This document shows positions 17,885 to 56,299 of a stretch of 64,000 nt of DNA, in pieces; within the stretch, counting starts at the first letter, position 1, and each line of letters opens with the position of its first letter. The notes beneath the pieces are model-generated. The model was not told where the DNA came from and searched no databases. It worked only from the letters and a program-made list of their open reading frames with translations. Position numbers and translations under genes: made by a program. Source of the DNA: Tunturiibacter empetritectus (GTDB taxonomy: Bacteria > Acidobacteriota > Terriglobia > Terriglobales > Acidobacteriaceae); the NCBI RefSeq assembly GCF_013410875.1, contig NZ_JACCCU010000002.1, forward strand, positions 806,001-870,000. Direction: 5' to 3'.

Positions 17885-18009
17885 TCGCTGCCTCTTCCGC
17901 ACTGGATGATAACGACATCCTTGTAGGTACGGGCTTGTGTGTTTTTGCGATTAGCGACGAGAGCGGGATGATGCAGATACAATTTTGTAACTACGAGGAC
18001 ATCCCTTCC

Positions 18010-20601
18010 ATGTATTCGAAATTTCTCACATCCTTCAATCCTGCTTTCCTGGCGAAGTTGGCCCTGAGTGCAACTGTTGCAATCTTGTGTGCGCCAGTGT
18101 TCGCCCAAGCGCCCCATCCGGTGGATGCTGCGGAACAACAGCGTGTGGATGCGATGGTGAAGCAGATGACGCTTCAGCAAAAGCTGGACTACATCGGAGG
18201 AACAGGGTTTGGGGTGCGGGCAGTTCCGTCGGCCGGGATTCCTGCGCTCGATATGTCGGATGGCCCCTTTGGGACGAGATCGAATTCGGGATTTCCTTCG
18301 ACGACGTATGGAGCAGGAATCAATACGGCAGCTTCGTGGGATCCTGCGCTGGCGGCGCGGGTGGGGGCAGGCATTGGGCGTGATGCGCGGGCACGTGGTG
18401 TTCACTTCATGCTTGGGCCCGGGGTGAATATCTACCGTTCGCCGCGAAATGGGCGCAACTTTGAATACTTCGGCGAGGATCCGTTCCTTTCAGGGCAGAT
18501 CGCCGTTGGTTACATCACGGGGATGCAGGAGCAGGGCGTCAGCGCGACGGTCAAGCATTATCTCGGCAACAATAGTGAGTTTTTGCGGCACGACTCAGAT
18601 ACCGAGATTGATGAACGCACCTTGCGCGAGATCTATCTGCCAGCCTTTGAGGCGGCGGTGAAGCAGGGGCATGTGAGCTCGGTGATGGACTCTTACAACC
18701 TGATCAATGGACAACATGCAACCCAGAACAGCTAGTTCAACATCGACATTCTGCGTAAGGAATGGGGCTTCAAAGGCGTGTTGATGTCGGACTGGGATGC
18801 GACCTACGATGCGATTGGCGCGGCGAACGGCGGGCTCGATATAGAGGAACCAAGCGGAAAGTTTATGAACAATGCAAACCTGGGCCCGGCGATACAGGCC
18901 GGCAAGGTAACCGAGGCGACGATCGACGAGAAGGTGCGGCATATCCTCGGGACGGCTGCTTCCTATGGCTGGCTGAATCGCGATCAACGCGATACGTCGA
19001 TCTCTTTCGTCGACGCGAAAAATAAAGAGGCTGCCCTTGATTCGGCTCGCGAGGGGGCTGTGCTGCTTAAGAACACAGGCAATTTGTTGCCGCTGGATAG
19101 ATCGGCGGTTAAGACGATTCTGATTGTCGGGCCGGACTCTTATCCTGGCGTGCCGGTGGGCGGAGGAAGCGCCGGGGTAGTGCCGTTTCATATGGTGAGT
19201 GCGCTTGAGGGTATCTCCAACGAAGTAGGCGCGACGACGACCGTGCTGTATGACCGGGGAGTTCCGACGTTGGAGCATCTGGCGTCCGCGACGGAGTTTA
19301 CGACCGAGGCCAAGGGTGGCAAGGCCGGGCTGACGCTTGAGAGCTTTAAAAATCTGGATCTGTCCGGGGCTCCGGCTACAAAGACTGTTGCACGTCATGC
19401 TGTCCTGGAAGGACTCACTATAAAAGATGTGATTGCAAACGTGGATGCGGTGATCGAGATGCTGTTCAACTCGCCACCGTCTGAAGTCTCGCATCGACTC
19501 ACCGGTTTTTATCATGCCGCGACCCCCACGAAATACATCTTCGCACTGGAGGACTCTGGGGAAGGATCAGGCAATCGGGTGTATGTCGATGACAAGCTGG
19601 TGATCGACAACTGGAAGATTGTGCGCGCGTTTCAGCCGCATGTAACGCTCGAGCTGGCGGAAGGGGCTCACAAGATAGTCGTCGAAGAGTGGCAAAAGAG
19701 TCCTATCGGAGGCCATGTGGAGCTGGGGATCGTGCCGGAAGACAAGGTGGTGAATCCGCAGGCCGTACAACTTGCCGCTAAAGCCGACGTGGTGCTTGTG
19801 GAGGCTGGTTTCGAACAGGAGAGCGAGGGCGAGGCTGGCGACAGGACGTTTGCGTTGCCGTATGGGCAGAGCGAACTGATTCGCGAGATCACGGCGGCAA
19901 ATCCGAAGGTTATCGTCGCTATCACGTCGGGCGGAAATGTCGATTCGGCGAAGTGGATTGATCGCGTACCCGCCGTGTTGGAGACATGGTACGCGGGACA
20001 GCAAGCGGGACAGGCGTTGGCTGAGATATTGTTCGGCGACGTTAATCCGTCGGGACATCTGCCCGCCACCTTTGAGCGCAATGCAGAGGACAATCCAACC
20101 TTCGCGAACTATTATCCCGAGGGCGACTCAAAGCGGGTCGACTACAAGGAAGGGATCTTTGTTGGATACCGCGGTTATGAGAAGAACAAGGTCAAGCCTC
20201 TGTTTCCGTTTGGATACGGTCTCTCGTACACCACCTTCAAGTTTACGAATCTGAAGTTCGATCAGAACGGCTCTGGCGATGAGGCTAGAGGCACGGCCAG
20301 CTTCGACGTGACGAACACGGGTAGTCGAAAAGGTGCTGAAGTCGCGCAGCTCTACGTGACGGAGGACCACCCGAAGGTGCCGCGACCAGAGCATGAGTTG
20401 AAGGGCTTCCAGCGGATAGAACTTTCACCCGGCGAGACGAAGCATGTCGAGATCCCATTGGAGGCGAGGTCGTTTTCTTACTATGATGTTGCGGCCAAGA
20501 GATGGGCGATTGGATCGAATCGATTCACGATTTCCGTAGGTGATTCGGTTGAATCGCTGCCGCTGAAGACGGGGGTTCCTTTGAAGTCCAGCGGGAATTG
20601 A
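18010..20601 (+). pseudogene. GH3 beta-glucosidase with in-frame TAG
   Basis: A 2592-base frame interrupted once, by TAG at 18733-18735. The ATG at 18010 starts a signal peptide (MYSKFLTSFNPAFLAKLALS). The N-terminal TIM barrel reads correctly (LDMSDGPFGTR, NGRNFEYFGEDPFLSG, KHYLGNNSE, VMDSYNLINGQHATQNS), then TAG, then FNIDILRKEWGFKGVLMSDWDA in the same frame. The Asp of SDWDA is the expected nucleophile, so the truncated product (241 residues) lacks it. Downstream are the GH3 C-domain, an inserted PA14-like segment (about GFYHAATPTKYIFALEDSG), and a fibronectin-III-like end. The enzyme would cleave beta-glucosides in the periplasm. The remaining reading frame is fully open, which points to recent mutation, sequencing error or readthrough. 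Confidence 0.88.
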
Positions 20602-20798: not shown

Positions 20799-22715
20799 TT
20801 AGAACTTCACGCGCTGCAGGAGCTCGCCAAATCTTGGGTCGGAACGCAGCCCATTTAGCGTGGGGTCCACCTTCACGTATGCCATGGATGTGGAATGGTC
20901 CGCAGAACTCTTTTCCAGCCAATTCAGAGCCTGGCCATTCTCCCTCAGCCCAGCGTAGATCATCGCCATCGCAAACGCAGGGACGTATTGGTGAGCCGAT
21001 TTATTCAGCAGAGTGACGAGAACCTCACGTGCCTCACGAGTCCTGCCGGCCATCGCATAGGCATGCCCCAGCCCGGCAGTGTAATAGACGTCGCCTCCCG
21101 ACAACTGCACGGCATGGGTGAACTCCGTAATTGCCTGGTCGTACAAACCCCTTGTTTCATACACGTCACCCAGGCGAAAGTGCGTACGCGGAAAGCTTGG
21201 ATCGATGTCGATTGCTTTGTTCAAGGTCTGGATAGCCTCTTCATAGTGGCCTGCCAGGCAAAACGTCCAGCCCGCGTTGCTGTTCACGCTTAACGACAGG
21301 GGGTCCTCCTCCACCGCGCGCCGCGCCTCCACCAGCGCCTCAGGAAAGCGCCCCATCGCCGCCAGATTTTCGGCATTCCATGAGTGTGCCATCGCGTAGT
21401 TGGGATTCACATCGAAGGCGCGCTGAAACTCGTTCTGCGCTGCGGGGCCATTCCAGTCGTAATAGAAGTCAATCAACCCCAGAGTCGCGTGCGCGTCGGC
21501 CAGATCTTCGTTCATCCGGAGAGCCTTGTTCGCCGCATCCCGTGCTGCCGGAAACGCCTCCTGCGGGGGAATCGCCGCATATAGCCCCAGCGCGGCATAG
21601 GAGTCCGCCACTCCCTCATATGCCTCCGCGAAGTTCGGATCCATCCGGATAGCCTCGCGGAAGAACTCCAGCCCCTTCATCATCCCCTCGTTCGTCCGTT
21701 TGTTCCAGTAGTACCTGCCCTTGACGAACGCGCTGTAAGCCTCCTGATTCTCCGTGGGCCTCTTCGTAAACCTCTTCTCTTCCTTGTTGTTCAGCTGCAG
21801 ACGAATGGAATGGGCGACCCGCTCCGAGACCTCATCCTCCAGGCTGAAGATATTCGTGAACTCCTCATCGAACGCCTGTGCCCACAACTGCGCTCCGTCC
21901 GCTACCCTCACCATCTGGACGGTCATCCGCACGCGATTCCCCTCGCGCTGAATCCTCCCATCGATGATCGCGTCTACCTGCTGCTCCTTCCCGGCACCCT
22001 CCGCGCTGATGGAGCTGCTCCTGTACTTCTCGATCGCGCTGGTCGGCCGGACCAGGATCTTCCCTGTATTGGACAGTCTCGTAATCAGCGCGTCAGCCGT
22101 TCCCAGGCCAAGATACTCATCGGAACCCGCGCCCCCTATCATCGCAAAGGGCAGTACAGCCAGCGATTTGATCGGACGGCCGTTTGCCGAAGCTGTAGCC
22201 ACATGCCTGCTCGCCAGCCACCAGCCAGTCATAGCCAATAGACCAGCGAGTGCAATAGCAGGGCCGGCCATCCACTTCCACCCGGCCAGCATCGATGGCA
22301 AAGCCGCGTACACGATTGGAGTCATAGCCGCCGGCTCTTCCTCCACGTGCTTTGGGTGCAGGTCGATGGATTCCAGCGGAACCTCCTGCCCCTCCACGAC
22401 CTGAGCCACAAAGCGATAGCCCTGCTTCGAAACAGTCTCAATATAGATATGCTTCCCGCGATCGTCGCCCAGAATCTTCCTCAAATGCGAGACCGTCACC
22501 GCCAGATTGCCTTCCTCGACCGACACTCTCGGCCAAAGAGCGTCCATCAGCTTTTCTTTCACCAGCAGCTGGCCATTGTTCTCCACCATCAGCACAAGCA
22601 GGTCGAACGCCTTCGGAGTTACGGAAACAGGTCTGCCCTGGCGTAGAAGAAGCCTCTGAACCGGATCCAGACTGAAGCTTCCAAATTCGTATAAGTGGCT
22701 GACCGTATGGGACAT
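20799..22715 (-). CDS. CadC-like membrane regulator with TPR domain
   Basis: A 638-residue protein. Residues 8-105 are an OmpR/PhoB winged helix (SVTPKAFDLLVLMVENNG, YIETVSKQGYRFVAQV). One TM segment lies at about 148-168. Next comes a TolB/FlgO-like alpha/beta domain (IKSLAVLPFAMIGG to about 310). From about 320 to the end are TPR units (RYYWNKRTNEGMMKGLEFF, AYEGVADSYAALGLY and others). The head would bind DNA at the inner membrane and the tail would sense in the periplasm. There is no receiver domain, so activation is not by phosphorylation. It is divergent from the TonB receptor at 22875, which it probably controls together with the following operon. Confidence 0.9.
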   Translation of the reverse strand: MSHTVSHLYEFGSFSLDPVQRLLLRQGRPVSVTPKAFDLLVLMVENNGQLLVKEKLMDALWPRVSVEEGNLAVTVSHLRKILGDDRGKHIYIETVSKQGYRFVAQVVEGQEVPLESIDLHPKHVEEEPAAMTPIVYAALPSMLAGWKWMAGPAIALAGLLAMTGWWLASRHVATASANGRPIKSLAVLPFAMIGGAGSDEYLGLGTADALITRLSNTGKILVRPTSAIEKYRSSSISAEGAGKEQQVDAIIDGRIQREGNRVRMTVQMVRVADGAQLWAQAFDEEFTNIFSLEDEVSERVAHSIRLQLNNKEEKRFTKRPTENQEAYSAFVKGRYYWNKRTNEGMMKGLEFFREAIRMDPNFAEAYEGVADSYAALGLYAAIPPQEAFPAARDAANKALRMNEDLADAHATLGLIDFYYDWNGPAAQNEFQRAFDVNPNYAMAHSWNAENLAAMGRFPEALVEARRAVEEDPLSLSVNSNAGWTFCLAGHYEEAIQTLNKAIDIDPSFPRTHFRLGDVYETRGLYDQAITEFTHAVQLSGGDVYYTAGLGHAYAMAGRTREAREVLVTLLNKSAHQYVPAFAMAMIYAGLRENGQALNWLEKSSADHSTSMAYVKVDPTLNGLRSDPRFGELLQRVKF

Positions 22716-22874: not shown

Positions 22875-25800
22875 ATGCATGACGCAGCCCATCGCCCGAA
22901 CCATCCGGTGAAGATCAGCCCCTTCAACCAAATCCCAGCCGCCATCGATGTCACCGGGAATCACGGACTGCTTCCAAGCCTCCTGAAGAGACCGGCGACC
23001 CACAGACTCGCCCCGCGCTCTGGAGTGTTCTTCCTGTTGGCTCTACTCCTCGTGCTCACCGTCGGCACCACCTGCGCACAGACCAGCCGCGCAAACCTCT
23101 CCGGAACTGTCGAGGACGCCACCGGAGCCAAGATACCCAAAGCCCTGGTCGTCATCACCAACATCGACACTAAGATCAGTCGAAGCATCACGGCCAACGA
23201 TGACGGCATCTACAACGCCCCCGCCCTGCCCCCCGGCAACTACATCGTCAAAGTCTCCGCCCCCGGGTTCGCCGGCGAAACGCGCAAAGGAGTCGTCCTC
23301 ACCGTCGGGGAAGCCTCCCTCATCAACTTCTCCCTCAAGGTCGGCAGTATCACCCAGGAGGTCGTCGTCACAGAGAGCCCTGCCTCGGTCGACGTCACCA
23401 GCTCCCAGCTTAGCAACGCCGTCAGTGGCCACGAGATGCGTGAGCTCCCCCTCAATGGCCGCTCCTGGACCGACCTTGCCTCCCTCTCCCCCGGCGTCAC
23501 CGTCATTCAGACCCAACCTCCTGTAAGTGCGCCCGACCGCATGAAGCGAGGACTTGGCGGTCAACTCAGCATCGCCGGTGGGCGTCCCCAGCAGAATAGC
23601 TACCTCCTCGACGGAATCAACATCAACGACTACTCCAACGCAGGCCCCGGAAGCGTGCTCGGAGGCAACATCGGAGTGGACGCACTCCAGGAGTTCACCG
23701 TCGTCACCACCAATCCCACCGCACAGTATGGCCGTACCGCAGCTGGAGTCATCAGCGCCGTCACCCGCTCAGGAACGAACTCTTTCCACGGAAGCGCCTA
23801 CGAGTTCGCCCGCAACGCTGCCCTCGACGCCCGCAACTACTTCGATCCCGTACAGAAGCCGGACTTCAGCCGCAACCAGTTCGGAGCCTCCTTCGGCGGA
23901 CCCATTCAAAAAGAAAAGACCTTCGTCTTCGGCGACTACGAAGGCGTCCGCCAAAACCTCGGCGTCTCCTACATCGATACCGTTCCTTCTCCAGCCGCAC
24001 GCGCCGGAACCCTCTGCGTCCCCTCGCCAGACGGCTCCAACCCCTGCGCCTCCACCATGCAGGTGACCCCCGACCCCGCCATCGTCAACTTCCTGAACAC
24101 CTTCATCCCCTTACCCAACACCGGAACCACCCAGGGCGACACCGGCACCTTTACCTTCCCCGCCTATCAGGTCACCAGCGAAAACTACTTCACCATCAGA
24201 GTCGACCGCACCTTCTCCCAGAAGGACACCGCCGCCGTCGTCTACATGTACGACAACTCACCGAGCCAGCAGCCGGATGCCTTCAACAACGTCCTCACCC
24301 TTAGTAAAACCGTTCGCCAGGCAGTGTCGATCCTGGAAACGCACATCCTCTCCTCCGCCACCGTAAATACCTTCCACGCTGGCTTCAGCCGCGACAACGC
24401 CGGCTCCCCCTACGCCGCCTCCGCCATCAAGCCGGCCGCTGCCGACCCGCAGTTCGGCTTTCAGCCCGGAGACAGCGCAGGAATCGTTCAGGTCCCCGGC
24501 ATCACCACCTTCACCGGAGGCGTCAGCGCTGCCAGCCCGCTGCTCTTTCGATGGAACTCCTTCCAAGGCTACGACGACGTCTCCCACACCGCCGGCAAGA
24601 ACAACATCACCTTCGGTGTCAGCATCGAGCGCATTCAGGACAATCAGGAGAGCTCCGACGCCCCCGGCGGCAACTTCTCCTTCCCCTCGCTTGACGCCTT
24701 CATCACCAACCAGCCACAGTCTTTCATCACCACTCTGCCCTCCACCCTCACCCCGCGCAATCTGCGCCAGACCATCTTCGGAGCCTACGTTCAGGACGAT
24801 CTCCGCCTGAATCCCAACCTTACCCTCAACCTCGGTCTCCGTTATGAGGCCGCCTCGGTCCCCTACGAGATCAACGGCAAGCTCTCCAACCTCCGCATCC
24901 TGCAGGGCAACACCCCCTACCTCGGCAACCCCTACATCAAGAACCCAACCTTCAAAAACTTTCAGCCCAAGGTAGGCTTCGCCTGGGATCCCTTCCACGA
25001 TGGCAACACCTCCATCCGCGGAGCCTTCGGCATCTACGACGTGCTTCCTTACATCGTCGAAATGGGCAGCGGCGTTGACGCAGCCTACCCCTTCGCCCAG
25101 GACGCCAGCACCGGCGTCCTTCCCGCAGGAGCCTTTCCCACCACCGCCTACCAGATCGTCGCCAACAACCCCGCAAACCGCAACTACTACGTCCTTCAGT
25201 ACAATCCCCCGCGCAACTACATCATGATGTGGAATCTCAACGTCCAGCGCGCCATCGCCAAGAACACCACCTTGCTCGTCGGCTACGTCGGCTCTCGCGG
25301 CGTCCACAACTGGTACCAGACCGACGACGCCAACATCGTCCTCCCCACCACTCCTGATGGAAAGAGCTTCTACTGGCCCACGCCCATCGGCAGCGGCACC
25401 GTCGTCGATCCACTCGTCGGTCAAACCCTCGATGCACGCTGGAACGGCAGCTCCTCCTTCCACGGGCTGGAGACCCAGATCACTCAATCTCCCTGGCACG
25501 GCCTCCAGGGTCAGCTCTCTTACACCTGGTCCCGCTGCATCGATACCAGCTCCGGTTCGGCTGCCTCCGATCAGTACAGAAACTCACTCAACGTCGACCT
25601 CTACATCGCACCCGCCACCCATCGCGGCCCCTGCGACACCAACGTCGGCCAGAACCTCACCATCAACGCAATCTGGAACCTCCCCGGAGACCAGGCCCGG
25701 CATGGCATCGCCGGATGGGCCATCAACGGCTGGCAGACCGGCGGCATCTTCAGCGCGGCCAGCGGAGCTCCCTTCAGCGTCACCATCGGCGGAGATCCCC

Positions 25801-26210
25801 TCGGAACCAACGCCGCCATCCCCTTCGACTTTCCCGACCGAATCAAAGGCTGCGGCAAAAGTCTTACCACCGGAGATCCAAACGGGTTTATCAATCTCAA
25901 ATGCTTTGCCTTCCCCAACCCCGTCAATCGCATGGGTAACGCTGGGAGAAACGAGCTCACCGGCCCCAGAAGCATCAACTTCGACTTCTCTCTCTACAAG
26001 AACACGCCCATTGAGCGGTTCGGCAAAGGCGCCAACCTCCAGCTTCGCGCTGAGATCTTCAACCTCATGAACCACGCCGACTTCGCAGCGCCCACCGACC
26101 ACTTCCAAATCTACGATGGCTCAGGAAACGGCGTTCCCTCCGCCGGTCTGATCGACCAAACAACTCTCACCTCCAGGCAAATTCAATTAGCGGTCAAGCT
26201 CACCTTCTAA
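22875..26210 (+). CDS. Oar-like TonB-dependent receptor (module A)
   Basis: A 1111-residue outer-membrane receptor. A GAGGAG precedes the ATG at 22875. The first 40 residues are unusually long before the hydrophobic signal core (SGVFFLLALLLVLTVGTTCAQ), so an internal start is possible. Then follow a carboxypeptidase-regulatory domain (ANLSGTVEDATGAKIPKALV), a plug (MRELPLNGRSWTDLASLSPG, SYLLDGININDYS), and a barrel ending with QIQLAVKLTF. It is divergent from a membrane regulator and lies 75 bases before a dicarboxylate symporter gene and four exported enzymes. It is therefore likely the outer-membrane entry for their substrate. Codon use is strongly C-ending, like the rest of this operon. 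Confidence 0.92.
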   Translation: MHDAAHRPNHPVKISPFNQIPAAIDVTGNHGLLPSLLKRPATHRLAPRSGVFFLLALLLVLTVGTTCAQTSRANLSGTVEDATGAKIPKALVVITNIDTKISRSITANDDGIYNAPALPPGNYIVKVSAPGFAGETRKGVVLTVGEASLINFSLKVGSITQEVVVTESPASVDVTSSQLSNAVSGHEMRELPLNGRSWTDLASLSPGVTVIQTQPPVSAPDRMKRGLGGQLSIAGGRPQQNSYLLDGININDYSNAGPGSVLGGNIGVDALQEFTVVTTNPTAQYGRTAAGVISAVTRSGTNSFHGSAYEFARNAALDARNYFDPVQKPDFSRNQFGASFGGPIQKEKTFVFGDYEGVRQNLGVSYIDTVPSPAARAGTLCVPSPDGSNPCASTMQVTPDPAIVNFLNTFIPLPNTGTTQGDTGTFTFPAYQVTSENYFTIRVDRTFSQKDTAAVVYMYDNSPSQQPDAFNNVLTLSKTVRQAVSILETHILSSATVNTFHAGFSRDNAGSPYAASAIKPAAADPQFGFQPGDSAGIVQVPGITTFTGGVSAASPLLFRWNSFQGYDDVSHTAGKNNITFGVSIERIQDNQESSDAPGGNFSFPSLDAFITNQPQSFITTLPSTLTPRNLRQTIFGAYVQDDLRLNPNLTLNLGLRYEAASVPYEINGKLSNLRILQGNTPYLGNPYIKNPTFKNFQPKVGFAWDPFHDGNTSIRGAFGIYDVLPYIVEMGSGVDAAYPFAQDASTGVLPAGAFPTTAYQIVANNPANRNYYVLQYNPPRNYIMMWNLNVQRAIAKNTTLLVGYVGSRGVHNWYQTDDANIVLPTTPDGKSFYWPTPIGSGTVVDPLVGQTLDARWNGSSSFHGLETQITQSPWHGLQGQLSYTWSRCIDTSSGSAASDQYRNSLNVDLYIAPATHRGPCDTNVGQNLTINAIWNLPGDQARHGIAGWAINGWQTGGIFSAASGAPFSVTIGGDPLGTNAAIPFDFPDRIKGCGKSLTTGDPNGFINLKCFAFPNPVNRMGNAGRNELTGPRSINFDFSLYKNTPIERFGKGANLQLRAEIFNLMNHADFAAPTDHFQIYDGSGNGVPSAGLIDQTTLTSRQIQLAVKLTF

Positions 26211-26285
26211 TTCGCCCACACCTCTCGCCAGTACCTGCATCCCGAGCAGCACACAGGCCTGGAACATGGCCCAAGGAAAGTGACC

Positions 26286-27674
26286 ATGAGAACAGAGATC
26301 GAGCCAGACGTTCCGCTGCGCAAGCCTTTCTATCAGAGCCTCTCCGTGCAGGTCACCGTGGCGATCGTTCTAGGGGTGGCTCTGGGTCGCTTCGCGCCGC
26401 AGACGGCCATCGCCATGAAGCCGCTCGGAGACGCCTTCATCAAACTCATCGCCATGGTCATCACCGTGGTGATCTTCTGCACCGTCGTCACCGGCATCGC
26501 TGGCATGCAGGATATGAAGAAGGTCGGGCGCGTCGGAGGCAAGGCCCTGCTCTACTTTGAGGTCGTCTCCACCCTCGCGCTCTTCATCGGCCTGGTCGCG
26601 GGAAATCTCGCCCACCCCGGCAGCGGATTGAACGTCAACCCCGCAACCCTCGACGTGAAGGCAGTAGCCGAGTACTCCGGCGCGGCCAAGGCGCAAAACA
26701 CCACGCAATTCCTGCTGCACATCATTCCCACCACTATGGTCGACGCCTTTGCCAAAGGAGACATCCTGCAGGTCGTCTTCATCTCCGTCCTCTTAGGTGT
26801 CGCCCTCGCCATGATGCACAGCCGCGCCGAGCCTCTCCTCCGCCTGCTCGAGGTGCTGACCCAGGCCATCTTCACCATCGTCAATCTCTTCATGCGCCTC
26901 GCACCCATCGGCGCCTTCGGAGCGATGGCCTTCACCGTGGGACGCTACGGCGTCATGTCCCTCGGGCCTCTGCTCAAGCTCATCCTCACCTTCTATCTCA
27001 CCTGCGCGCTCTTCGTCATCATCGTTCTCGGCGCGGTCTCCTGGCTGGCCGGCTTCAACATCTTCCGCTTCCTGCGCTACATCAAGGAAGAGATTCTTCT
27101 CGTCCTCGGCACCAGCTCCTCAGAGTCGGCTCTCCCCAGCCTCATGGAGAAGATGGAGCGCCTCGGCTGCTCCAAAGCTCTCGTCGGTCTCGTCGTCCCT
27201 ACCGGCTACACCTTCAACACCGATGGCAGCAGTCTCTACATCACCATGGCCGCGCTCTTCGTAGCTCAAGCGACCAACACCCACCTCACCATCGGCCAGC
27301 AGCTCAGCCTGTTTGCTGTTGCAATCCTCACCTCCAAGGGTGCAAGCGGCGTCCAGGGCGCAGGCTTCGTCGCGCTCGTCGGAACCCTCATCGTCGTGCC
27401 CACGATTCCGGTTGCGGGCATGGCGCTCATCCTCGGCATCGATCGCTTTCTCAGCACCTTTCGCGCCCTGGTCAACATGATCGGCAACGGCGTAGGCACT
27501 ATCGTTGTAGCCTCATGGGAGCATGAGATCGAGGGTTCTGCACTGACTCAAGCTCTAGCGATGCCAAATAATCGCACCATCGAACAGCAGATCATGGACC
27601 AACCGAGGATGGACCGACAAATCAGAGACCAACAGATCTCGGAGGGCGAAGAAGAACATGAACCCATCGGATGA
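26286..27674 (+). CDS. dctA: C4-dicarboxylate/proton (Na+) symporter, DctA/GltP type
   Basis: A 462-residue inner-membrane transporter of the DAACS family with 8 TM helices and two re-entrant loops. The serine-rich loop [20 protein letters not shown] and the [18 protein letters not shown] region match the substrate- and cation-binding segments of DctA/GltP. The ATG at 26286 follows AAGGAA; a GTG two codons upstream is less likely. It should import succinate-, malate- or fumarate-like acids or glutamate. The C-terminus is an extended polar tail rich in Gln, Asp and Glu. The next gene overlaps its end by 17 bases. Confidence 0.92.
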
Positions 27675-28758
27675 ACCCGTGCTCGGAGGTTCCAACACTC
27701 CAGAGACCGCGCCTTCGCGCCGAAGTTTTCTACTCCGCTCCCCCTTGGCTCTAGCGAGCACCATGACCCTGCTGGGAGACCCTCCCCCACACAGCGCCCA
27801 CGCCTCTACCCGGCCAGCCTCGCAACCGGCCACGTGGAGCCGCGAGTACTGGGCCCACAGGGGAGACATCAAGCTCTACCTCTTCCGCAAGAACGCCGGG
27901 CCTGCCCCATCAGGCCACTCCACCCGCCCCATCCTCTTCCTCTGCCACGGCTCTTCCGTCTCCTCCCGGCCGACCTTTGACCTCGAAGTCCCCGGCCACG
28001 GCGAATACTCCCTGATGAACAAGTTCGTTGAGTTCGGCTTCGATGTCTGGACGATGGACTTCGAGGGCTACGGAAGATCCTCACTCTCCGCCGGCAACTC
28101 GAACATCGCCGACGGCGTGGAAGACCTGAAGGCGGCGAGCCTGATCGTCCAGCAGGAGACCGGCCAGCCTGCCTTTCATCTCTACGGAGAGTCCGGCGGC
28201 GCACTCCGCGCCGGAGCCTTCGCCGTCGCCCAGCCCGCCAGCGTCCGTCGCCTCGTCCTCGCAGCCTTCACCTGGACAGGCAAGGGCTCGTCCACCCTCA
28301 CCAAACGTGCCGAGTCGCTCGACTCCTACCGCACCCACAACCTACGCCCCCGCGATCGCGACGCCATCCGCAGCATCTTCACCCGGGACAAACCCGGCAC
28401 CTCCGACCCCGCCGTCGCCGAGGCTATGGCCGACGCTGAACTCAAATTTGGTGACTCCGCCCCTACCGGAACCTACCTCGATATGTCCGCCAACCTTCCC
28501 CTCGTCGACCCCACCAAACTCCGCGTTCCCGTCCTCATCGTGCGCGGCGAGTATGACGGCATCGCCACCGAGGAAGATCTCCTGAACTTCTTTCGCAGCC
28601 TTCCCGTTCCCGACCGCGAGTTCGTCATCCTCCCCGGGGCCGCTCACTCGGTCGCCCTCGGCACAAACCGAAGTCAACTCTGGCACACCATGCGAGCGTT
28701 CCTCGATATGCCTCCGCGTCTCGATCAGAAGCCTCCTCCAGCAGACTCCGGTCTTTAG
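27658..28758 (+). CDS. Tat-exported alpha/beta hydrolase
   Basis: A 366-residue enzyme. A twin-arginine signal lies at residues 18-45 ([20 protein letters not shown]). The oxyanion region is FLCHGSS. The nucleophile elbow is LYGESGGA with Ser179. The acid is probably Asp in VRGEYDGIA, and the base His in [10 protein letters not shown]. It should hydrolyse an ester, lactone or thioester in the periplasm. The start overlaps dctA by 17 bases, so they are translationally coupled, and the next gene begins 16 bases on. Substrate unknown; an acid released by it could be imported by DctA. Confidence 0.88.
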
Positions 28759-28774
28759 CGTTTGTTCCTTAACA

Positions 28775-30328
28775 ATGATGACACTCCGCACGAATACTCC
28801 CGTGCACCTTCGGAAAGCGAGCAAATCTCCTCCTATGAGTCTCTCCCATCTGCTCTCCCGCCGCGCCTTCCTCGTCCAGGGAGCACTGGCCGGAGTCTCA
28901 GCCAACGCGGTCGCCCCCGCCCCATCCCCGCAAACACCCGCAGCGCAGACACCTACGCCGCAAGCACCCACCGAGGTCCAACCCTCCACTCCCCCCGCGA
29001 CCCGCATCCTCGCCGATTGGCTGGTCTCCTCTCCGCAAGACGCTGTACCCGACAATGTGCGAAAGGAAGCGGTGCGCTCCATCGTCAACTGGGTCGGAGT
29101 CACCGTCGGAGGCTCTGGCCAGCAGGCTGTCGTCCGAGCCCTCGCCACCCTTCAGCCCTACACCGGCACCTCCTCCGCACACCTCTTCGGCCGCTCCGAG
29201 ACCCTCGACCCGCTTCGCGCCGCCTTCATCACCGGCATCAGCTCCCACGTGCTCGACTACGACGACACCCACCTCGAGACCATCATCCACCCCGCAGGCC
29301 CCGTCGCCAGCGCCCTCTTCTCGCTCGCTCAGACCCGACCAGTCAGCGGAGCCGATCTCCTCCACGCCTTCATCCTTGGCACCGAGATCGAGTGCCGTCT
29401 CGGCAAAGTCATCTATCCCTCCCACTACGACATGGGCTGGCACATCACAGGAACCTGCGGAGTCTTCGGTGCCGCCGCCGCATGCGGGCGCATCCTCGGC
29501 CTGAACGCCCAGCAGATGCGGTGGGCGCTCGGCATCGCCGCCACCGAAGCAGCTGGCCTCAAGATCATGTTCGGAAGCATGTGCAAGAGCCTTAACATCG
29601 GACGTGCCGCCGAGAACGGCCTTCTCGCAGCTCTCCTCGCCGCAAACAACTTCACCAGCTCCGACGAGAGCATCGAAGGTCACGACGGCTACATCTTCGC
29701 CGCCTCCCGCCAGCACGATTACGCCCGTCTCGTCGACGGCCTCGGTCAACACTACGAGATCGCTCTCAACACCTACAAGCCATTCGCCTGCGGCATCGTT
29801 ATCCATCCCGTCATCGACGGCGTCCTCCAGCTCCGCAACCAGCACCACCTCAAAGCCCCCGAGATCCGCTCCATCGCCATCCGCGCCAACCCCCTTGTCC
29901 TCGAGCTCACCGGCAAGAAGACACCCACCACTGGACTCGAAGCCAAGTTCAGCGTCTTCCACTCCGCCGCAGTCGCTCTCCTCCGCGGCTTCGCAGGAGA
30001 GAAGGAGTACACCGACGAGGCCGCACGCGATCCCCAAGTCATTGCCCTTCGCGAGCGCGTCACCGTCGCCGTCGATCCCATCGTCCAAACTGACGAGGCA
30101 TACATCACCATTACCACCACCGACGGTCAAACCTTCACCAAGCATGTAGAGCACGCCGTAGGCAGCGTCCAGAACCCACTCTCCGACAAAGATCTCTCCT
30201 TCAAGTTCACCCAGCTCGCCACCGGCATCCTTCCCCCCGCCCAGATCGAAGAGCTTCTGACCTTTGCTTGGAACCTACCCGAGCAACACAACGCCGGCGA
30301 CCTCCCGCGCCTGGGAGCCCTCGCATGA
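28775..30328 (+). CDS. Tat-exported MmgE/PrpD family protein (1)
   Basis: A 517-residue MmgE/PrpD protein, the family of 2-methylcitrate dehydratase, cis-aconitate decarboxylase and iminodisuccinate epimerase. An N-terminal twin-arginine signal (SRRAFLVQGALAGVSANAV) and a Pro/Ala/Thr-rich linker precede the family domain, which starts near residue 70. The family core is seen as HVLDYDDTHLETIIHPAGPV. Classical members are cytoplasmic, so the export signal is unusual. The ATG at 28775 has a poor ribosome-binding site; ATG at 28835 is an alternative that keeps the signal. A second paralogue lies two genes downstream. The substrate is presumably a hydroxy- or unsaturated polycarboxylate. Confidence 0.88.
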   Translation: MMTLRTNTPVHLRKASKSPPMSLSHLLSRRAFLVQGALAGVSANAVAPAPSPQTPAAQTPTPQAPTEVQPSTPPATRILADWLVSSPQDAVPDNVRKEAVRSIVNWVGVTVGGSGQQAVVRALATLQPYTGTSSAHLFGRSETLDPLRAAFITGISSHVLDYDDTHLETIIHPAGPVASALFSLAQTRPVSGADLLHAFILGTEIECRLGKVIYPSHYDMGWHITGTCGVFGAAAACGRILGLNAQQMRWALGIAATEAAGLKIMFGSMCKSLNIGRAAENGLLAALLAANNFTSSDESIEGHDGYIFAASRQHDYARLVDGLGQHYEIALNTYKPFACGIVIHPVIDGVLQLRNQHHLKAPEIRSIAIRANPLVLELTGKKTPTTGLEAKFSVFHSAAVALLRGFAGEKEYTDEAARDPQVIALRERVTVAVDPIVQTDEAYITITTTDGQTFTKHVEHAVGSVQNPLSDKDLSFKFTQLATGILPPAQIEELLTFAWNLPEQHNAGDLPRLGALA

Positions 30329-30362
30329 CAAACTTTCCATCCACTACCTTCGCGAGGAATCC

Positions 30363-31616
30363 ATGCTGAACCAGAACGACGAAAGGCCTTCCGCCGACTC
30401 TCTATCACGCCGCTCCTTCCTGGAGGCCGGTTCCGTAGCCTTAGCCGCCGCAGCCTTAGGAGGTGCCAGCCTCTCCGCCCAACAGCCATCGGCCACCTCA
30501 CCTAACGCATCCGGCTCTAATCCCGGTCAAGAGAATCTTCCGCTCCTCAAAGAAAACCCCAGCTCTAATACTCCTCCCCGCACTGACCGCGGAGACATTG
30601 GACCGATCTGGTACTCCTTCGACCTTAACCACAAACGCCTGGAGAATGGTGGCTGGACACATCAAGTGACTCAGCGTGAGCTTCCTCCATCCAGGGATCT
30701 CGCCGGAGTCAACATGCGCCTCACCGCTGGCAGCTTCCGCGAGCTTCACTGGCACACCGCAGACGAGTGGGCCTACATGATCTACGGCTCCGCCCGCGTA
30801 ACTGTCCTCAATCCGGACGGGACCATCCAGATCGAAGATGTCTCCAAGGGCGACCTCTGGTTTTTTCCCGCTGGCTTCCCGCACTCCATTCAGGGCCTCG
30901 CCTCCGACGGCTGCGAGTTTCTTTTGGTCTTCGACGAAGGATTTTTCTCCGAGGAGAACACCTTTTCCATCTCCGAGTGGGTCGCTCACACCCCGCCAGA
31001 GATCCTTGAAAAGAACTTCCGCCTTAGCAGCAGCGAGCTTTCGAAGCTGCCCACACGCGAACTCTTCATCTTCCCCGCCGCGCTGCCGCAGTCCCTCGAG
31101 CACGACCGCCAATCCGCAGGCGGTCCCTCTGCTGTATCACCCATCCAATACATCTTCCGCGCGGGATCCATGCCGCCCACAAAGTCTTCCCCCCAGGGCG
31201 AAGTTCGCATCGTCGACTCGCGTAACTTTCCCGCCTCGAAGTCCGTCGCCGCCGGCATCGTAACCCTCAAACCCGGAGGCCTGCGCGAGCTGCATTGGCA
31301 CCCCACCGCCGCCGAATGGCAGTTCTACATCGCAGGCTCCGGCAGGATGACTGTCATAGCCCCAGGTGGCCGCGCACGCACCATGGATTTCAACGCTAAC
31401 GACGTTGGCTTCGTCCCCACGGCTGCAGGCCACTACATCGAAAACACCGGCTCCTCCGACCTCATCTTTCTTGAGATGTTCAAGCTCGATCAATTCCTCG
31501 AGTTCTCTCTCAATAACTGGATACGTCGTCTCCCCCCAGAGATGGTCTCGGCTCACCTCAACCTTGACGCCTCTTCCATAAGCCGCATTCCCGCAGAGAA
31601 GCTGGCCATCCTTTAG
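30363..31616 (+). CDS. Tat-exported oxalate-decarboxylase-like bicupin
   Basis: A 417-residue bicupin. The ATG at 30363 follows GAGGAA; an upstream in-frame start would overlap the PrpD gene. A Tat signal lies at residues 14-40 (SRRSFLEAGSVALAAAALGG). Cupin 1 has HWHTADEW (H129, H131, E135) and the distal His in GFPHS (H174). Cupin 2 has HWHPTAAEW and a distal His in AGHYIE. Both therefore keep the four manganese ligands. The lid that in Bacillus OxdC reads S-E-N-S here reads S-E-E-N (196-199), keeping the catalytic Glu that favours decarboxylation over oxidation. It would convert oxalate, or a related acid, to formate and CO2 outside the cytoplasm. Confidence 0.88.
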   Translation: MLNQNDERPSADSLSRRSFLEAGSVALAAAALGGASLSAQQPSATSPNASGSNPGQENLPLLKENPSSNTPPRTDRGDIGPIWYSFDLNHKRLENGGWTHQVTQRELPPSRDLAGVNMRLTAGSFRELHWHTADEWAYMIYGSARVTVLNPDGTIQIEDVSKGDLWFFPAGFPHSIQGLASDGCEFLLVFDEGFFSEENTFSISEWVAHTPPEILEKNFRLSSSELSKLPTRELFIFPAALPQSLEHDRQSAGGPSAVSPIQYIFRAGSMPPTKSSPQGEVRIVDSRNFPASKSVAAGIVTLKPGGLRELHWHPTAAEWQFYIAGSGRMTVIAPGGRARTMDFNANDVGFVPTAAGHYIENTGSSDLIFLEMFKLDQFLEFSLNNWIRRLPPEMVSAHLNLDASSISRIPAEKLAIL

Positions 31617-31702
31617 TCGCGTGTCGTGATGGGGATTCCTGCGTGGCATCCTCGTTGTTCCGCTTCCCCACCACCGCGATTCGCCCGAATTCAGGAGACT
31701 CA

Positions 31703-33241
31703 ATGGACGCACCGCACCTATCGTTCAAACCACTGGAGGCACCAAACTCCGTCCCCCAACTCACTCGCCGGAATCTGCTCGCAAAGGGAGCCTGTGTGCT
31801 GGCCGGCACCGCTCTACCTCTTCCTTCGTATTTATTTTCAGAGGAGCAGCAGACGCCCTCCGCCCCCATCGGCCCTGTCATGCAGACCCTCAGCACCTAC
31901 ATGGCCCAGGCCGCCACCCGGCCACTCCCTCCCGCCATCATCGAGCAGGCAAAAGATCACATCCTCGACACCTTCGCCGCTATGATCTCCGGCTCCCAGC
32001 TTCCTCCCGGCCGCGCCGCCATCGCCTTCGCACAATCCTACGGCGGTAAGCCAGTCGCCTCTGTCGCCACCTCCGTCATTCTGTGCGGTCCGCTCGAAGC
32101 GGCCCTGGCCAACGGAGTCCTCGCCCACTCCGACGAGACCGATGACTCCCACTCCCCGTCGCAGTCCCACCCAGGCTGCGCTGTAGTTCCCGCCGCACTC
32201 GCTGTGGGCGAACAGTTCAACATCTCCGGCTCCCACTTTCTCCGCGCCGTCACCCTCGGGTACGACATAGGCCCGCGCTTCGGCGTCACCCTCGGTGGAG
32301 TCAACTATCAGACCGAGACACACCGTGATCCCCACGCCACCTCCGAAGGCTTCGGAGCCGCAGCTGCCGCTGGCTGTGCCGCCTCCCTCGACGTACGCCA
32401 GATGCGCCTCCTCCTCGATTACGCTTCGCAGCAGTCCTCAGGCTTCACTGCGTGGCAACGGGACACCCTCCACGTCGAAAAAGCCTTCGTCTTCGCCGGC
32501 ATGCCCGCCCGCAATGGAGTCACCTCCGCTTTGCTGGTTCAGGCGGGCTGGAGCGGCGTCGATGATGTGCTCTCAGGCCCCGAAAGCTTCTTCGCAGCCT
32601 ACGCCCCTCACGCCAATCCTCAGGGGCTCGCCAAGAATCTAGTCGGCGGTCTCGGAGAGCACTACGAGATCACACGCACGAATATCAAGAAATGGTGCGT
32701 CGGCTCGCCCATTCAAGCGCCGCTCGACGCCGTTCAGCTCCTCCTGAACCAGCACTCCTTCACCCCGGACCAGGTTCGTCACGTCACCGTAAAAGTCGCC
32801 ACCCGCGAGGCCACGATAGTCGACAACCGCGCACTCCCCGACATCTGCCTCCAACACCTCGTCGCCGTCATGCTCGTCCAGCGAACCCTAACCTTTCGCT
32901 CTGCCCACGACGCCGCCCTCATGAAGGATTCAGGCATCCTCCAACAACGCGCCAAAGTCACTCTGATCGGAGACGAAGAGCTCGAGAAACGCCTCCCCGC
33001 CCGCGAAGCCACCGTCGAGATCCTTTTGAATGACGGCACCGTCCTCACCCAGCACGTCGACGCCGTCCGCGGAACTGCCGAGAACCCAATGAGTCGTGAA
33101 GAGATCATCGCCAAGTCCCGCGACCTCATCGAACCTGTCCTCGGACCTGCGTCCTCGAAGGCGCTTATCTCTGCAGTCCTCCAGCTCGAGCAACTCACAG
33201 ACATACACACTCTCAGCCGGTTGCTTCGCAGCTCGTCATGA
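31703..33241 (+). CDS. Tat-exported MmgE/PrpD family protein (2)
   Basis: A 512-residue paralogue of the protein at 28775. The ATG at 31703 is chosen because CAGGAG lies 6 bases upstream; the open frame extends 20 codons further. A Tat signal is at residues 18-45 (LTRRNLLAKGACVLAGTAL). The family core reads HSDETDDSHSPSQSHPGCAV, which differs from the DYDDTH of the first paralogue. The two are therefore unlikely to have identical substrates, or may form a heteromer. It is the last gene of the run, 280 bases before the tRNA-Ser gene. Regulation is presumably by the divergent membrane regulator. Confidence 0.87.
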   Translation: MDAPHLSFKPLEAPNSVPQLTRRNLLAKGACVLAGTALPLPSYLFSEEQQTPSAPIGPVMQTLSTYMAQAATRPLPPAIIEQAKDHILDTFAAMISGSQLPPGRAAIAFAQSYGGKPVASVATSVILCGPLEAALANGVLAHSDETDDSHSPSQSHPGCAVVPAALAVGEQFNISGSHFLRAVTLGYDIGPRFGVTLGGVNYQTETHRDPHATSEGFGAAAAAGCAASLDVRQMRLLLDYASQQSSGFTAWQRDTLHVEKAFVFAGMPARNGVTSALLVQAGWSGVDDVLSGPESFFAAYAPHANPQGLAKNLVGGLGEHYEITRTNIKKWCVGSPIQAPLDAVQLLLNQHSFTPDQVRHVTVKVATREATIVDNRALPDICLQHLVAVMLVQRTLTFRSAHDAALMKDSGILQQRAKVTLIGDEELEKRLPAREATVEILLNDGTVLTQHVDAVRGTAENPMSREEIIAKSRDLIEPVLGPASSKALISAVLQLEQLTDIHTLSRLLRSSS

Positions 33242-33518
33242 TATTGGGACACAAGCGCATGGAGCAAAAGGCGCGTCGACGCTTGGCTCCAAAGGCGAGA
33301 AGACCGCCCGCGTAGGCCGCGTTCACACTGGATGGAAAGCGTGCTGGAGACAATCCGCGTCATGATCGACTTGACTGCCACAGCCTGTCGTTCGTTCATT
33401 CGGGAACGAGGCTGGATCGGACGGATGGTCCGCCCACGCGAACTTCCGCGATGAGGTGATGCCTCGTCTGCTTCACCGGAAATCTAGAGGTCTCTTGGGG
33501 ATCCTGATACTAGTTTGT

Positions 33519-33610
33519 GGCGGAGAATGGGGGATTCGAACCCCCGATAGAGCTTTCGCCCTATAACGGTTTAGCAAACCGCCGCCTTCAGCCACTCGGC
33601 CAACTCTCCG
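33519..33610 (-). tRNA. tRNA-Ser(GCU)
   Basis: On the minus strand a complete class-II tRNA is visible: acceptor GGAGAGT with pairing ATTCTCC, a D-arm with GGCCGAGTGGCTGAAGG, an anticodon loop TTGCTAA giving GCU, a long variable arm (TATAGGGCGAAAGCTCTAT), a T-arm GGGGGTTCGAATCCCCC, discriminator G and an encoded CCA. The long variable arm and GCU anticodon identify serine. The 3' end faces the 22.9-33.2 kb operon. No integrase or duplicated 3' end is seen nearby. Confidence 0.95.
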
Positions 33611-40364: not shown

Positions 40365-40919
40365 ATGCAGGAGATGCGCCAGAGTTCCGTGACACTCGTT
40401 CTTGGCGGCGTTCGCAGCGGCAAGAGCCGTTATGCGCAGCAGCTTGCAGAGCGAGAAAGCCGCGTGATCTTTGTGGCGACAGCGAAGGCTTCGGACGACG
40501 AGATGCAGAGGAAGATCGAACGGCATCGCAAAGAGCGCCCGGCGGAGTGGATCACGGTGGAGGAGCCGTTGGAGCTGGTACAGGTACTGACGGAGCATGG
40601 GCAGAGCTGCGATGTGATGGTGGTGGATTGCCTGACGATCTTTGCGGCGAATCTTCTTGAGACCGAAGGTGATGACCAAGACGCCGTAAATCGTCGCGTT
40701 GAGGCTTTCTGTGAGGCGTTGCGGTCGGCTCGTTGCTCGGTTGTGCTGGTTTCAAACGAGGTAGGCAGCGGAGTGGTGCCCGCATACACCCTGGGACGGC
40801 GTTATCGTGATTTGCTGGGTGAGATCAATCAGAGCGTGGCAAGAGTCGCCGATGATGTGGTGCTGATGGTAGCTGGCCTGCCGCTTGCGCTGAAGGGTCA
40901 TCTTGAGGTGACTCTGTGA
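40365..40919 (+). CDS. cobU: Adenosylcobinamide kinase / guanylyltransferase
   Basis: A 184-residue enzyme that phosphorylates adenosylcobinamide and then attaches GMP. The P-loop is LGGVRSGKSRYAQQLAE; the GTP-binding segment VVDCLTIFAANLL and VSNEVGSGVVPAYTLGRRYRD with its guanylylated-His equivalent region are visible. ATG at 40365 follows AAGGAG; a GTG 7 codons upstream is rejected. It is the first gene behind the riboswitch and overlaps cbiA by 4 bases. Confidence 0.93.
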   Translation: MQEMRQSSVTLVLGGVRSGKSRYAQQLAERESRVIFVATAKASDDEMQRKIERHRKERPAEWITVEEPLELVQVLTEHGQSCDVMVVDCLTIFAANLLETEGDDQDAVNRRVEAFCEALRSARCSVVLVSNEVGSGVVPAYTLGRRYRDLLGEINQSVARVADDVVLMVAGLPLALKGHLEVTL

Positions 40920-42307
40920 GAGGGCTGCTGATTTCAGGTGCTGCAAGCGGCGTTGGTAAGACTACGGTATCTCTTGCGATTATGGCGGGCCTGCGACGGC
41001 GCGGGCTTGCGGTGCAGCCGTTCAAATGTGGACCCGACTTTCTGGACACGGGACACCACACCCGAATATGTGGGCGAAATGCTCGCAACCTTGACACGTG
41101 GATGCTGAGTGAAGAGGCGAACCGAAGTGTTCTGCGAGATGCAGCACGTGGCGCGGATGTTCTGGTTGCTGAAGGCATGATGGGTTTGTTCGATGGAAAG
41201 AGTGGGAACACTGAAGCGGGCAGCACCGCGGAGATTGCCAAGCTGCTGAAGCTGCCGGTGGTGCTGGTTGTCGATGCGGCAAAGACTGCGCGAAGCATCG
41301 CAGCGGTGGTGCTCGGCTTTGAGATGTTCGATCCGCAACTGCAGCTTGCGGGAGTGATTCTGAATCGTGTTGCGACGGAGCGGCACTACGAGATGCTGAG
41401 GGCGGCGATTGAGACAAGCTGCAGGACTAAGATTCTCGGTTGGCTGCCACGCGATCCGACGATTGCGATTCCTGAACGGCATCTTGGCTTGCAGGGGGCG
41501 GCGGAAGCGGCGATTGGTGACGATGCTGCGATCGACACACTGGCCGCGCTCGCGGAAAAGTTCTTCGATCTGGATCGTTTGCTTGAGCTGCAGTGCGGTT
41601 TGGAGCTGAACGAGGATCAGGATTTCGGCGTGAAGCATTCGCCTTCTGAAGAAGATGTGCGAATCGGCTTCCCGTCCGATCATGCTTTCTCGTTCTATTA
41701 TGAGGACAATCTTGACCTGCTGGGCGAACAGGGAGCTGAGATTGTCTGGTTCAGTCCGCTACACGACAGGTGCCTGCCACCCGGACTGGACGGGCTGTAC
41801 CTGGGGGGAGGATATCCCGAACTGCATGCAGAACAGTTGAGCAGTAATCGCAGGATGCTCGAGGATGTTCGTACCTTCGCGGCTTCGGGAAGACCGGTCT
41901 ATGCGGAGTGCGGAGGGATGATTTATCTATCCGAAAGCCTCAGCACAACGGACGGGGAGACGTACCCGATGGCTGGCGTGCTACCGCTGTCGATGCAGAT
42001 GACGGATAAACTCGTGCAGTTCGGATACGTCACTGTTGAGTTCACCGCCGACTGCTTGCTGGGCGTGAAAGGAACCACCGTTCGCGGGCACAGCTTTCAC
42101 TATTCGTGTCTTGTTTCCCGGGGAGAGGTGGCAACAAATTATCGCGTGCAGTACTCGATGTCCGGCAAAGAGGAGCTTGAGGGATTTAGGCAAGGCAATG
42201 TGCTGGCCAGCTATGTTCATCTACACTTCCGGGCGAATCCTACAATCGCGAGAGATTTTGTCGCTGCCATTCGACGAGCGCGCACACTGCAGACGGTGGC
42301 GCGGTGA
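40916..42307 (+). CDS. cbiA: Cobyrinic acid a,c-diamide synthase
   Basis: A 463-residue glutamine-dependent amidase that adds amide groups to side chains a and c of the corrin ring. The ATP-binding P-loop GAASGVGKTTVS opens the protein, AEGMMGLFDG follows, and the C-terminal glutaminase domain carries LGGGYPELHAEQL and the nucleophile Cys in YAECGGMIYL. GTG start at 40916 overlaps the cobU stop. Its presence implies that cobyrinic acid is either made elsewhere in the genome or taken up. Confidence 0.93.
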   Translation: MRGLLISGAASGVGKTTVSLAIMAGLRRRGLAVQPFKCGPDFLDTGHHTRICGRNARNLDTWMLSEEANRSVLRDAARGADVLVAEGMMGLFDGKSGNTEAGSTAEIAKLLKLPVVLVVDAAKTARSIAAVVLGFEMFDPQLQLAGVILNRVATERHYEMLRAAIETSCRTKILGWLPRDPTIAIPERHLGLQGAAEAAIGDDAAIDTLAALAEKFFDLDRLLELQCGLELNEDQDFGVKHSPSEEDVRIGFPSDHAFSFYYEDNLDLLGEQGAEIVWFSPLHDRCLPPGLDGLYLGGGYPELHAEQLSSNRRMLEDVRTFAASGRPVYAECGGMIYLSESLSTTDGETYPMAGVLPLSMQMTDKLVQFGYVTVEFTADCLLGVKGTTVRGHSFHYSCLVSRGEVATNYRVQYSMSGKEELEGFRQGNVLASYVHLHFRANPTIARDFVAAIRRARTLQTVAR

Positions 42308-56230: not shown

Positions 56231-56299
56231 GGTGAAGCCTCCAAAGGTGCTGCCTAAATTGCGTGTAGTCGATTGGTTGTCAAGACTCGAGGGAGAACG

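What the first reader, a model, noticed from the sequence alone, without database searches (positions are those of the whole stretch)
22875..33241. Operon of four different enzymes that all carry Tat signals, with receptor and symporter
Seen directly: a TonB receptor, a DctA-type symporter, an alpha/beta hydrolase, two MmgE/PrpD proteins and an oxalate-decarboxylase-like bicupin lie in one direction with gaps of -17 to 86 bases. Each of the four enzymes has an R-R-x-[FL]-L twin-arginine signal. Known: MmgE/PrpD enzymes are normally cytoplasmic. Inference: this is a complete periplasmic pathway for a polycarboxylate or its ester (hydrolase, then PrpD dehydration/decarboxylation/epimerisation, OxdC decarboxylation, import by DctA). 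I know of no described pathway with this composition.
Basis: partly seen in the sequence, partly recalled or inferred. Interest (0 to 1): 0.72.

Follow-up and report, generated by a model that had tools for sequence, protein, structure and literature searches.

The report
Exported PrpD-type acid-processing enzyme operon
An acidobacterium carries an operon in which four enzymes, two of them from a family whose studied members work inside cells, bear export signals, so it probably processes an organic acid outside the inner membrane and imports the product; close relatives keep both the operon and the signals.

Summary
Six same-strand genes encode a TonB-type receptor, DctA, an alpha/beta hydrolase, MmgE/PrpD no. 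1, an oxalate-decarboxylase-type bicupin and MmgE/PrpD no. 2. All four enzymes pass a strict twin-arginine test that 4 of 341 genes pass in a 400-kb sample of the genome. The operon with its divergent regulator recurs in four further genomes of the genus. Export looks like a clade property: Tat-like N-termini in 123 of 139 PrpD1 relatives at >=47% identity, 25 of 26 PrpD2 relatives at >=45%, and 0 of 19 PrpD1 relatives at 37-47%; a tree shows three Tat-tagged clades. PrpD2 genes often lie with a TonB receptor, an importer and, in 8 of 22 genomes, a clade C Tat-PrpD within 25 kb. This supports extracytoplasmic processing of a conjugated carboxylate before import. New variant of a known kind. 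My limited paper searches found no account of exported MmgE/PrpD enzymes.

The parts
20799..22715 (-). divergent winged-helix (Trans_reg_C) + TPR regulator, candidate operon regulator
   Evidence: kept beside the operon in L059, L060, L061, L102, L153-L155
22875..26210 (+). TonB-dependent receptor-like outer-membrane protein (CarboxypepD_reg, Plug, OMP_b-brl_4)
   Evidence: this type is very common in the genome (76 matches)
26280..27674 (+). DctA-type C4-dicarboxylate symporter
   Evidence: NF002461 625 bits, cut-off 513
27658..28758 (+). Tat-tagged alpha/beta hydrolase
   Evidence: relatives share contig lengths with PrpD1 relatives in the protein database
28775..30328 (+). PrpD1: Tat-tagged MmgE/PrpD protein of clade A (likely start 28835)
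30363..31616 (+). Tat-tagged oxalate-decarboxylase-type bicupin
   Evidence: TIGR03404 478 bits; OxdC 1j58/5vg3 395 bits, ligand residues kept
31643..33241 (+). PrpD2: Tat-tagged MmgE/PrpD protein of clade B (likely start 31703)
   Evidence: (strict test only)
33518..33609 (-). tRNA-Ser(GCT), beyond the 3' end of the operon

Best explanation
The operon encodes an extracytoplasmic processing-and-uptake route for an organic acid that arrives as an ester or other conjugate. The outer-membrane receptor admits it; the Tat-exported alpha/beta hydrolase frees a hydroxy-di- or tricarboxylate; PrpD1 and PrpD2, exported folded by Tat, do cofactor-free chemistry at a carbon next to a carboxylate (epimerisation, dehydration or decarboxylation); DctA imports the resulting C4 dicarboxylate. 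The bicupin, folded with Mn in the cytoplasm and exported by Tat as in cyanobacterial MncA, decarboxylates oxalate in the same compartment and is probably an accessory, not a step of the main route. Shown by calls: gene order, families, Tat-like N-termini, conservation, clade structure, linkage to hydrolases and importers. Inferred: actual export, substrate, order of steps, each reaction. A tartrate- or malate-like substrate is favoured only for the related family-wide clusters, by the adjacent tartrate-dehydrogenase-type gene.
For: Operon with regulator in G150, G406, G494 and G502 as well as G000 (the hydrolase of G150 seen). Tat-like N-termini: PrpD1 relatives >=80% 17 of 17, 47-80% 106 of 122, 37-47% 0 of 19; PrpD2 relatives >=45% 25 of 26 (rows under 430 aa dropped; the window's own proteins and near-copies are included). 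Three separate Tat clades. Clade A outside the operon: a CocE/NonD- or tannase-type hydrolase with a signal-like N-terminus (by eye) directly upstream in 6 of 11 loci (L062, L063, L065, L068, L069, L070; L063 and L065 confirmed by NCBIfam/Pfam, the others by similarity to them). PrpD1 and hydrolase relatives share 13 contig lengths against 0.7 expected. Clade B: of 20 loci fetched, leaving out G150 and two short contigs, 15 of 17 show a TonB receptor and 12 of 17 an MFS or DctA importer somewhere in the stretch held (L121 has DctA, amidase and TonB receptor with PrpD2). Clades B and C co-occur in 12 of 200 family genomes (B 22, C 19; Fisher p 4e-9), in 8 of the 12 within 25 kb. TTC-type dehydrogenase within about 2 kb of clade C in 13 of 19 loci (one member tested, TIGR02089 541 bits, cut-off 470). 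Catalytic His of IDS-epimerase/IRG1 in 35 of 35 PrpD1-set rows and 30 of 30 PrpD2 rows; IDS-epimerase Tyr base in 33 of 35 PrpD1-set rows.
Against: No substrate, product or localisation is shown. TonB receptors of this type are abundant (76 matches in the genome), so their presence alone says little. L061 keeps only DctA-PrpD1-PrpD2. Window PrpD2 has no clear A-x-A site and fails the charge-free test. The own genome has no TTC gene over the cut-off (best 237 bits), so the tartrate clue does not come from this operon. 5 of 11 clade A loci outside the operon have no CocE or tannase hydrolase next door, and in one of the six that do (L070) the PrpD1 frame is split and no Tat signal was seen. Clade A is rare in the sampled phylum (7 of 396 genomes at E<=1e-110) and genus (5 of 60). 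8 of 122 rows at 47-80% have an N-terminal extension without a detected RR and 8 have no extension. Co-occurrence counts are not corrected for relatedness.
Confidence: 0.5

Rival explanations
1. Two functions share one transcript: oxalate decarboxylation by the bicupin (oxalate detoxification or pH control) and a separate hydrolase-PrpD-DctA carboxylate route.
For: In the loci held, the bicupin lies next to the PrpDs only in the 5 full-operon genomes and is absent from the L061 operon; it keeps the OxdC ligand set and lid Glu; MncA is a precedent for a Tat-exported oxalate decarboxylase.
Against: It sits between the two PrpD genes with gaps of 34 and 86 bases and is 95-99% identical among the full operons, which suggests constant co-expression.
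Confidence: 0.35
2. The PrpDs epimerise imino- or amino-dicarboxylates (IDS/EDDS- or opine-like chelators) rather than hydroxy acids; the hydrolases cleave amides.
For: The best solved relative of PrpD1 is IDS-epimerase (156 bits), with both proposed base residues kept. Amidohydrolase-, amidase- or creatininase-like genes lie near some relatives.
Against: The match is distant (156 bits) and B. subtilis IRG1 scores nearly as well (142 bits); the operon hydrolase is esterase-like; other relatives carry tannase-, CocE- or tartrate-dehydrogenase-type genes.
Confidence: 0.15
3. The twin-arginine N-termini are not functional export signals and the PrpDs act in the cytoplasm.
For: Window PrpD2 lacks a clear A-x-A site and has a Lys at the start of its hydrophobic stretch; studied PrpD/IRG1 enzymes are cytosolic or mitochondrial (recalled).
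Against: Sharp clade boundary: 0 of 19 against 123 of 139 and 25 of 26; hydrophobic stretch after RR; linkage to hydrolases with signal-like N-termini.
Confidence: 0.07

Closest known systems
IDS-epimerase and IRG1/cis-aconitate decarboxylase (MmgE/PrpD family)
   Same: Sequence family; catalytic His and, in PrpD1, Tyr base kept
   Different: Those enzymes have no Tat signal (recalled); here the proteins are Tat-tagged and paired in an operon with a symporter and an outer-membrane receptor; PrpD2 rows have E for D in the acidic motif, K-K for K-P and an extra His segment
PrpD 2-methylcitrate dehydratase (methylcitrate cycle)
   Same: Pfam family
   Different: Far below the NCBIfam cut-offs (PrpD1 47 of 950, 33 of 575 and 29 of 458 bits; PrpD2 39 of 950); no prpB/prpC genes among the six
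OxdC / MncA (Sll1358) oxalate decarboxylase bicupins
   Same: TIGR03404; metal-ligand residues and lid Glu kept; MncA is also a Tat substrate
   Different: Lid loop reads SEENT, not SENST; lies between two PrpD genes
ttu tartrate utilisation genes (transporter + tartrate dehydrogenase; recalled)
   Same: Several clade B/C clusters in the family hold an MFS importer and a TTC-type dehydrogenase
   Different: Add Tat-PrpDs, TonB receptor and secreted hydrolase; the window operon itself has no TTC gene

Membership tests
MmgE/PrpD family (PF03972 + PF19305) | both domains over the curated cut-off | tested here: met
   both proteins
PrpD 2-methylcitrate dehydratase | NCBIfam equivalog score | tested here: not met
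   PrpD1 47 of 950, 33 of 575 and 29 of 458 bits; PrpD2 39 of 950
IDS-epimerase-type | two proposed base residues H99 and Y145 (PMC7347537) | tested here: met
   PrpD1 H172, Y218; His 35 of 35 rows, Tyr 33 of 35. For PrpD2 only partly: His 30 of 30, Tyr 15 of 30 in A4 and 7 of 20 in A2; the window PrpD2 has the Tyr
IDS-epimerase-type | epimerase activity on iminodisuccinate | not testable with these tools
   needs enzyme assay
Oxalate decarboxylase bicupin | TIGR03404 over cut-off and both metal sites | tested here: met
   478 bits, cut-off 254; ligands read from the alignment (roles of the residues recalled)
Oxalate decarboxylase bicupin | lid-loop glutamate and SENST loop (recalled) | tested here: inconclusive
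   Glu kept, loop SEENT
DctA | NF002461 over cut-off | tested here: met
   625 bits, cut-off 513
Tat substrates | RR motif plus hydrophobic stretch | tested here: met
   all four enzymes pass the strict test; PrpD2 fails the looser charge-free test
Tat substrates | A-x-A cleavage site | tested here: inconclusive
   by eye: seen in hydrolase and PrpD1, less clear in the bicupin, none in window PrpD2
Tat substrates | Tat-dependent export | not testable with these tools
   needs tat mutant or reporter
ttu-type tartrate catabolism | TTC dehydrogenase in the locus | tested here: not met
   none in the operon; genome best 237 bits, cut-off 470

The most novel reading that the evidence does not exclude
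MmgE/PrpD enzymes have been moved outside the inner membrane several times, as pairs with different active sites, to interconvert stereoisomers or dehydrate hydroxy-dicarboxylates (tartrate or a relative, freed from plant, fungal or lichen conjugates) before uptake. A PrpD1/clade C enzyme would be an epimerase working like IDS-epimerase, possibly a gene for the old 'tartrate epimerase' activity (that activity and its lack of a gene are recalled, not checked), and PrpD2 a lyase or decarboxylase acting on its product.
Probability: 0.15. Interest if true: 0.72.

Novelty: new variant of a known kind. Interest (0 to 1): 0.52.

Why it matters
If the enzymes are exported, carbon-acid chemistry known from central metabolism runs outside the inner membrane in Acidobacteriota and some Pseudomonadota. 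Many proteins that a source names '2-methylcitrate dehydratase PrpD' (dozens among the 240 listed) would then be misnamed, and a defined gene set (two Tat-PrpDs, hydrolase, importer, TonB receptor) would mark a carbon source of these bacteria that growth tests could find.

Tried and rejected
Methylcitrate-cycle role: rejected, scores far below the PrpD equivalog cut-offs and no prpB/prpC among the six genes. Chance grouping of RR motifs: rejected. TonB receptor as specific evidence: down-weighted, 76 matches of this type in the genome. TTC dehydrogenase in the own genome: none over the cut-off. Lichen alkylcitrates as substrate: thought of because two full-operon records are named Edaphobacter lichenicola; no data, left as speculation. 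Structure models were not obtained: structure prediction was busy, so no fold search was run. 'tartrate epimerase' as a paper search gave one vinegar-fermentation paper (listing only). The phrase 'MmgE PrpD' was a poor choice: the family name is printed with a slash, and the phrase had no hits even in a paper about the family.
Full report
What is there. Six same-strand genes lie in window 22875-33241 with junctions of -17 to 86 bases when the likely starts are used. Pfam and NCBIfam name them as a TonB-type receptor, DctA, an alpha/beta hydrolase, an MmgE/PrpD protein (PrpD1), an oxalate-decarboxylase-type bicupin and a second MmgE/PrpD protein (PrpD2). A divergent winged-helix/TPR regulator precedes them and a tRNA-Ser lies after them on the other strand. 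The genome (5.07 Mb, 5 contigs) has no other PF03972 match and no other TIGR03404 match at the search threshold.

Tat signals. All four enzymes pass a strict twin-arginine test ([ST]RRx[FL] plus hydrophobic stretch). In a 400-kb sample of the same genome 4 of 341 called genes pass, never two in a row; with a looser motif but no charge allowed, 17 of 341 pass, longest run two, and of the four enzymes PrpD2 then fails because of a Lys. These are scripts of mine, not SignalP. Window PrpD2 has no clear A-x-A site; the Granulicella relative has one.

Conservation of the operon. In 60 genomes sampled from the genus, 5 have a PrpD1 relative at E<=1e-110, four of them with this operon (the window's own included) and one (G592, 57%) in another setting; in 396 sampled from the phylum, 7. 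A Granulicella record (L061) has regulator, DctA, PrpD1 and PrpD2 at 76-85% without hydrolase, bicupin or TonB receptor in the operon; a different, broken hydrolase-like ORF lies beyond the regulator. The core is thus DctA + two PrpDs.

Export as a clade property. Among relatives of 430 aa or more a Tat-like N-terminus is found in 17 of 17 PrpD1 relatives at >=80%, 106 of 122 at 47-80% (8 have no N-terminal extension, 8 an extension without a detected RR; one of those, L064, does show RR by eye), 0 of 19 at 37-47% (Roseomonas and relatives, Chloroflexota, one Acidothermales record), 18 of 39 below 37%, and 25 of 26 PrpD2 relatives at >=45%, the last being cut by a contig end. These rows include the window's own proteins and near-copies. 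In a quick maximum-likelihood tree of 122 rows three Tat clades appear: A (PrpD1; 37 rows, of which 32 tagged, 2 untagged, 3 unclear), B (PrpD2; 26 rows, 25 tagged) and C (about 32% to PrpD1; 19 rows, all tagged), with untagged clades between; the Tat label needs 6 changes, 5 of them forced by well-supported branches. Some long branches make the deep order unsure. That Tat export arose more than once is the simplest reading, but losses cannot be excluded.

Active sites. PrpD1 is closest among solved proteins to IDS-epimerase (2hp0, 156 bits) and B. subtilis IRG1 (7bra, 142 bits), PrpD2 to the same two at about 82 bits. According to PMC7347537 (passages, section 9), H99 and Y145 are the proposed bases of IDS-epimerase. 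PrpD1 has both (H172, Y218) and the second His (H223). In the PrpD1 alignment (35 rows, some from untagged clades) the His is in 35, the Tyr in 33. In the PrpD2 rows the His is in 30 of 30, the Tyr in 15 of 30 (7 of 20 in the other alignment); these rows have E instead of D in the acidic motif and nearly all K-K instead of K-P. The two are therefore not simple duplicates and may do different reactions.

Bicupin. It scores 478 bits against TIGR03404 and 395 bits against OxdC; the alignment shows both metal sites, the arginines beside them and the lid glutamate kept, with loop SEENT instead of SENST (residue roles recalled). PMC4192464 and PMC11742986 (passages read) state that MncA, a periplasmic Mn-cupin with oxalate decarboxylase activity, is a Tat substrate that traps Mn before export. 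A Tat-exported oxalate decarboxylase is therefore not new in itself.

Gene neighbourhoods elsewhere. For clade A, 6 of 11 loci outside the operon have a CocE/NonD- or tannase-type hydrolase with a signal-like N-terminus directly upstream (L062, L063, L065, L068, L069, L070); in L070 the PrpD1 frame is split. L156 has a creatininase-like gene and TonB receptor, L158 an amidohydrolase-like gene nearby, L064 an amidase-like gene about 2 kb off on the other strand; L066 and L067 (near-identical) show none next door (L063 and L157 are one contig). In the protein database the longest-contig lengths of PrpD1 and hydrolase relatives coincide 13 times against 0.7 expected by jittering (an indirect test). 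For clade B, of 20 loci fetched I left out G150 and two short contigs; of the other 17, 15 show a TonB receptor and 12 an MFS or DctA importer somewhere in the stretch held, at up to about 9 kb. L121 combines TonB receptor, amidase, two enolase-superfamily proteins, DctA and PrpD2. Clades B and C occur together in 12 of 200 family genomes (B in 22, C in 19), 8 of them within 25 kb on one contig, 4 on different contigs. A TTC-type dehydrogenase lies within about 2 kb of clade C in 13 of 19 loci, farther off in two and unseen in four, two of which are short contigs; the one member tested passes TIGR02089 (541 bits, cut-off 470).

Reading. Different hydrolases, different importers and different second PrpDs recur around these proteins. 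That pattern is the best support for hydrolysis, PrpD chemistry and import outside and across the inner membrane. The tartrate-dehydrogenase link makes a hydroxy-dicarboxylate likely for the B/C clusters; for the window operon, DctA points to a C4 dicarboxylate. The bicupin is probably an accessory for oxalate. None of the reactions is shown.

Literature. Of the open-access full-text searches, searches used the phrase 'MmgE PrpD', which cannot match the usual slash spelling, and say little. Searches (MmgE, PrpD, twin-arginine: 4 papers; MmgE, TonB-dependent receptor, operon: 1; MmgE, Acidobacteri: 6) listed nothing that by title and abstract start treats exported MmgE/PrpD enzymes; none of the 15 listed papers held 'PrpD family protein'. 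Of these listed papers one was opened: PMC10924467 names an MmgE/PrpD gene only in a neighbourhood legend (passage). The others were seen as listings. Subscription journals are not covered.

Verdict. Observation confirmed; interpretation partly supported; a new variant of known families with an unusual location. Interest 0.52.

Noticed in passing
window 17935-20601 (+): A GH3-like glycosidase gene is interrupted by one in-frame stop near 18733, giving two ORFs (family read from sequence); described only.
   Followed up: partly
own genome: 76 matches to the OMP_b-brl_4 barrel (PF25183) in 5.07 Mb, some of them pieces of one gene: a large set of TonB-type receptors.
   Followed up: partly
L113, L115, L119, L120, L161, L163 and relatives: A recurring family-wide cluster, not all parts in each locus: TonB receptor, PrpD2-type protein, beta-propeller protein with CxxCH (seen in L113, L119), MFS importer, TTC dehydrogenase, clade C Tat-PrpD, amidohydrolase, two-component system.
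   Followed up: partly
L104, L107, L108, L110, L111, L112: A second cluster type around PrpD2, not all parts in each locus: phosphodiesterase/sulfatase-like protein, Vgb-lyase-like protein, MFS importer, two-component system.
   Followed up: no
window 50653-58719: Amylase-like gene, TonB receptor and a divergent winged-helix-type regulator repeat the regulator-receptor-enzyme layout (read from sequence).
   Followed up: no
window 40916-50503: A run of genes that look like cobalamin synthesis genes (read from sequence, not scanned).
   Followed up: no
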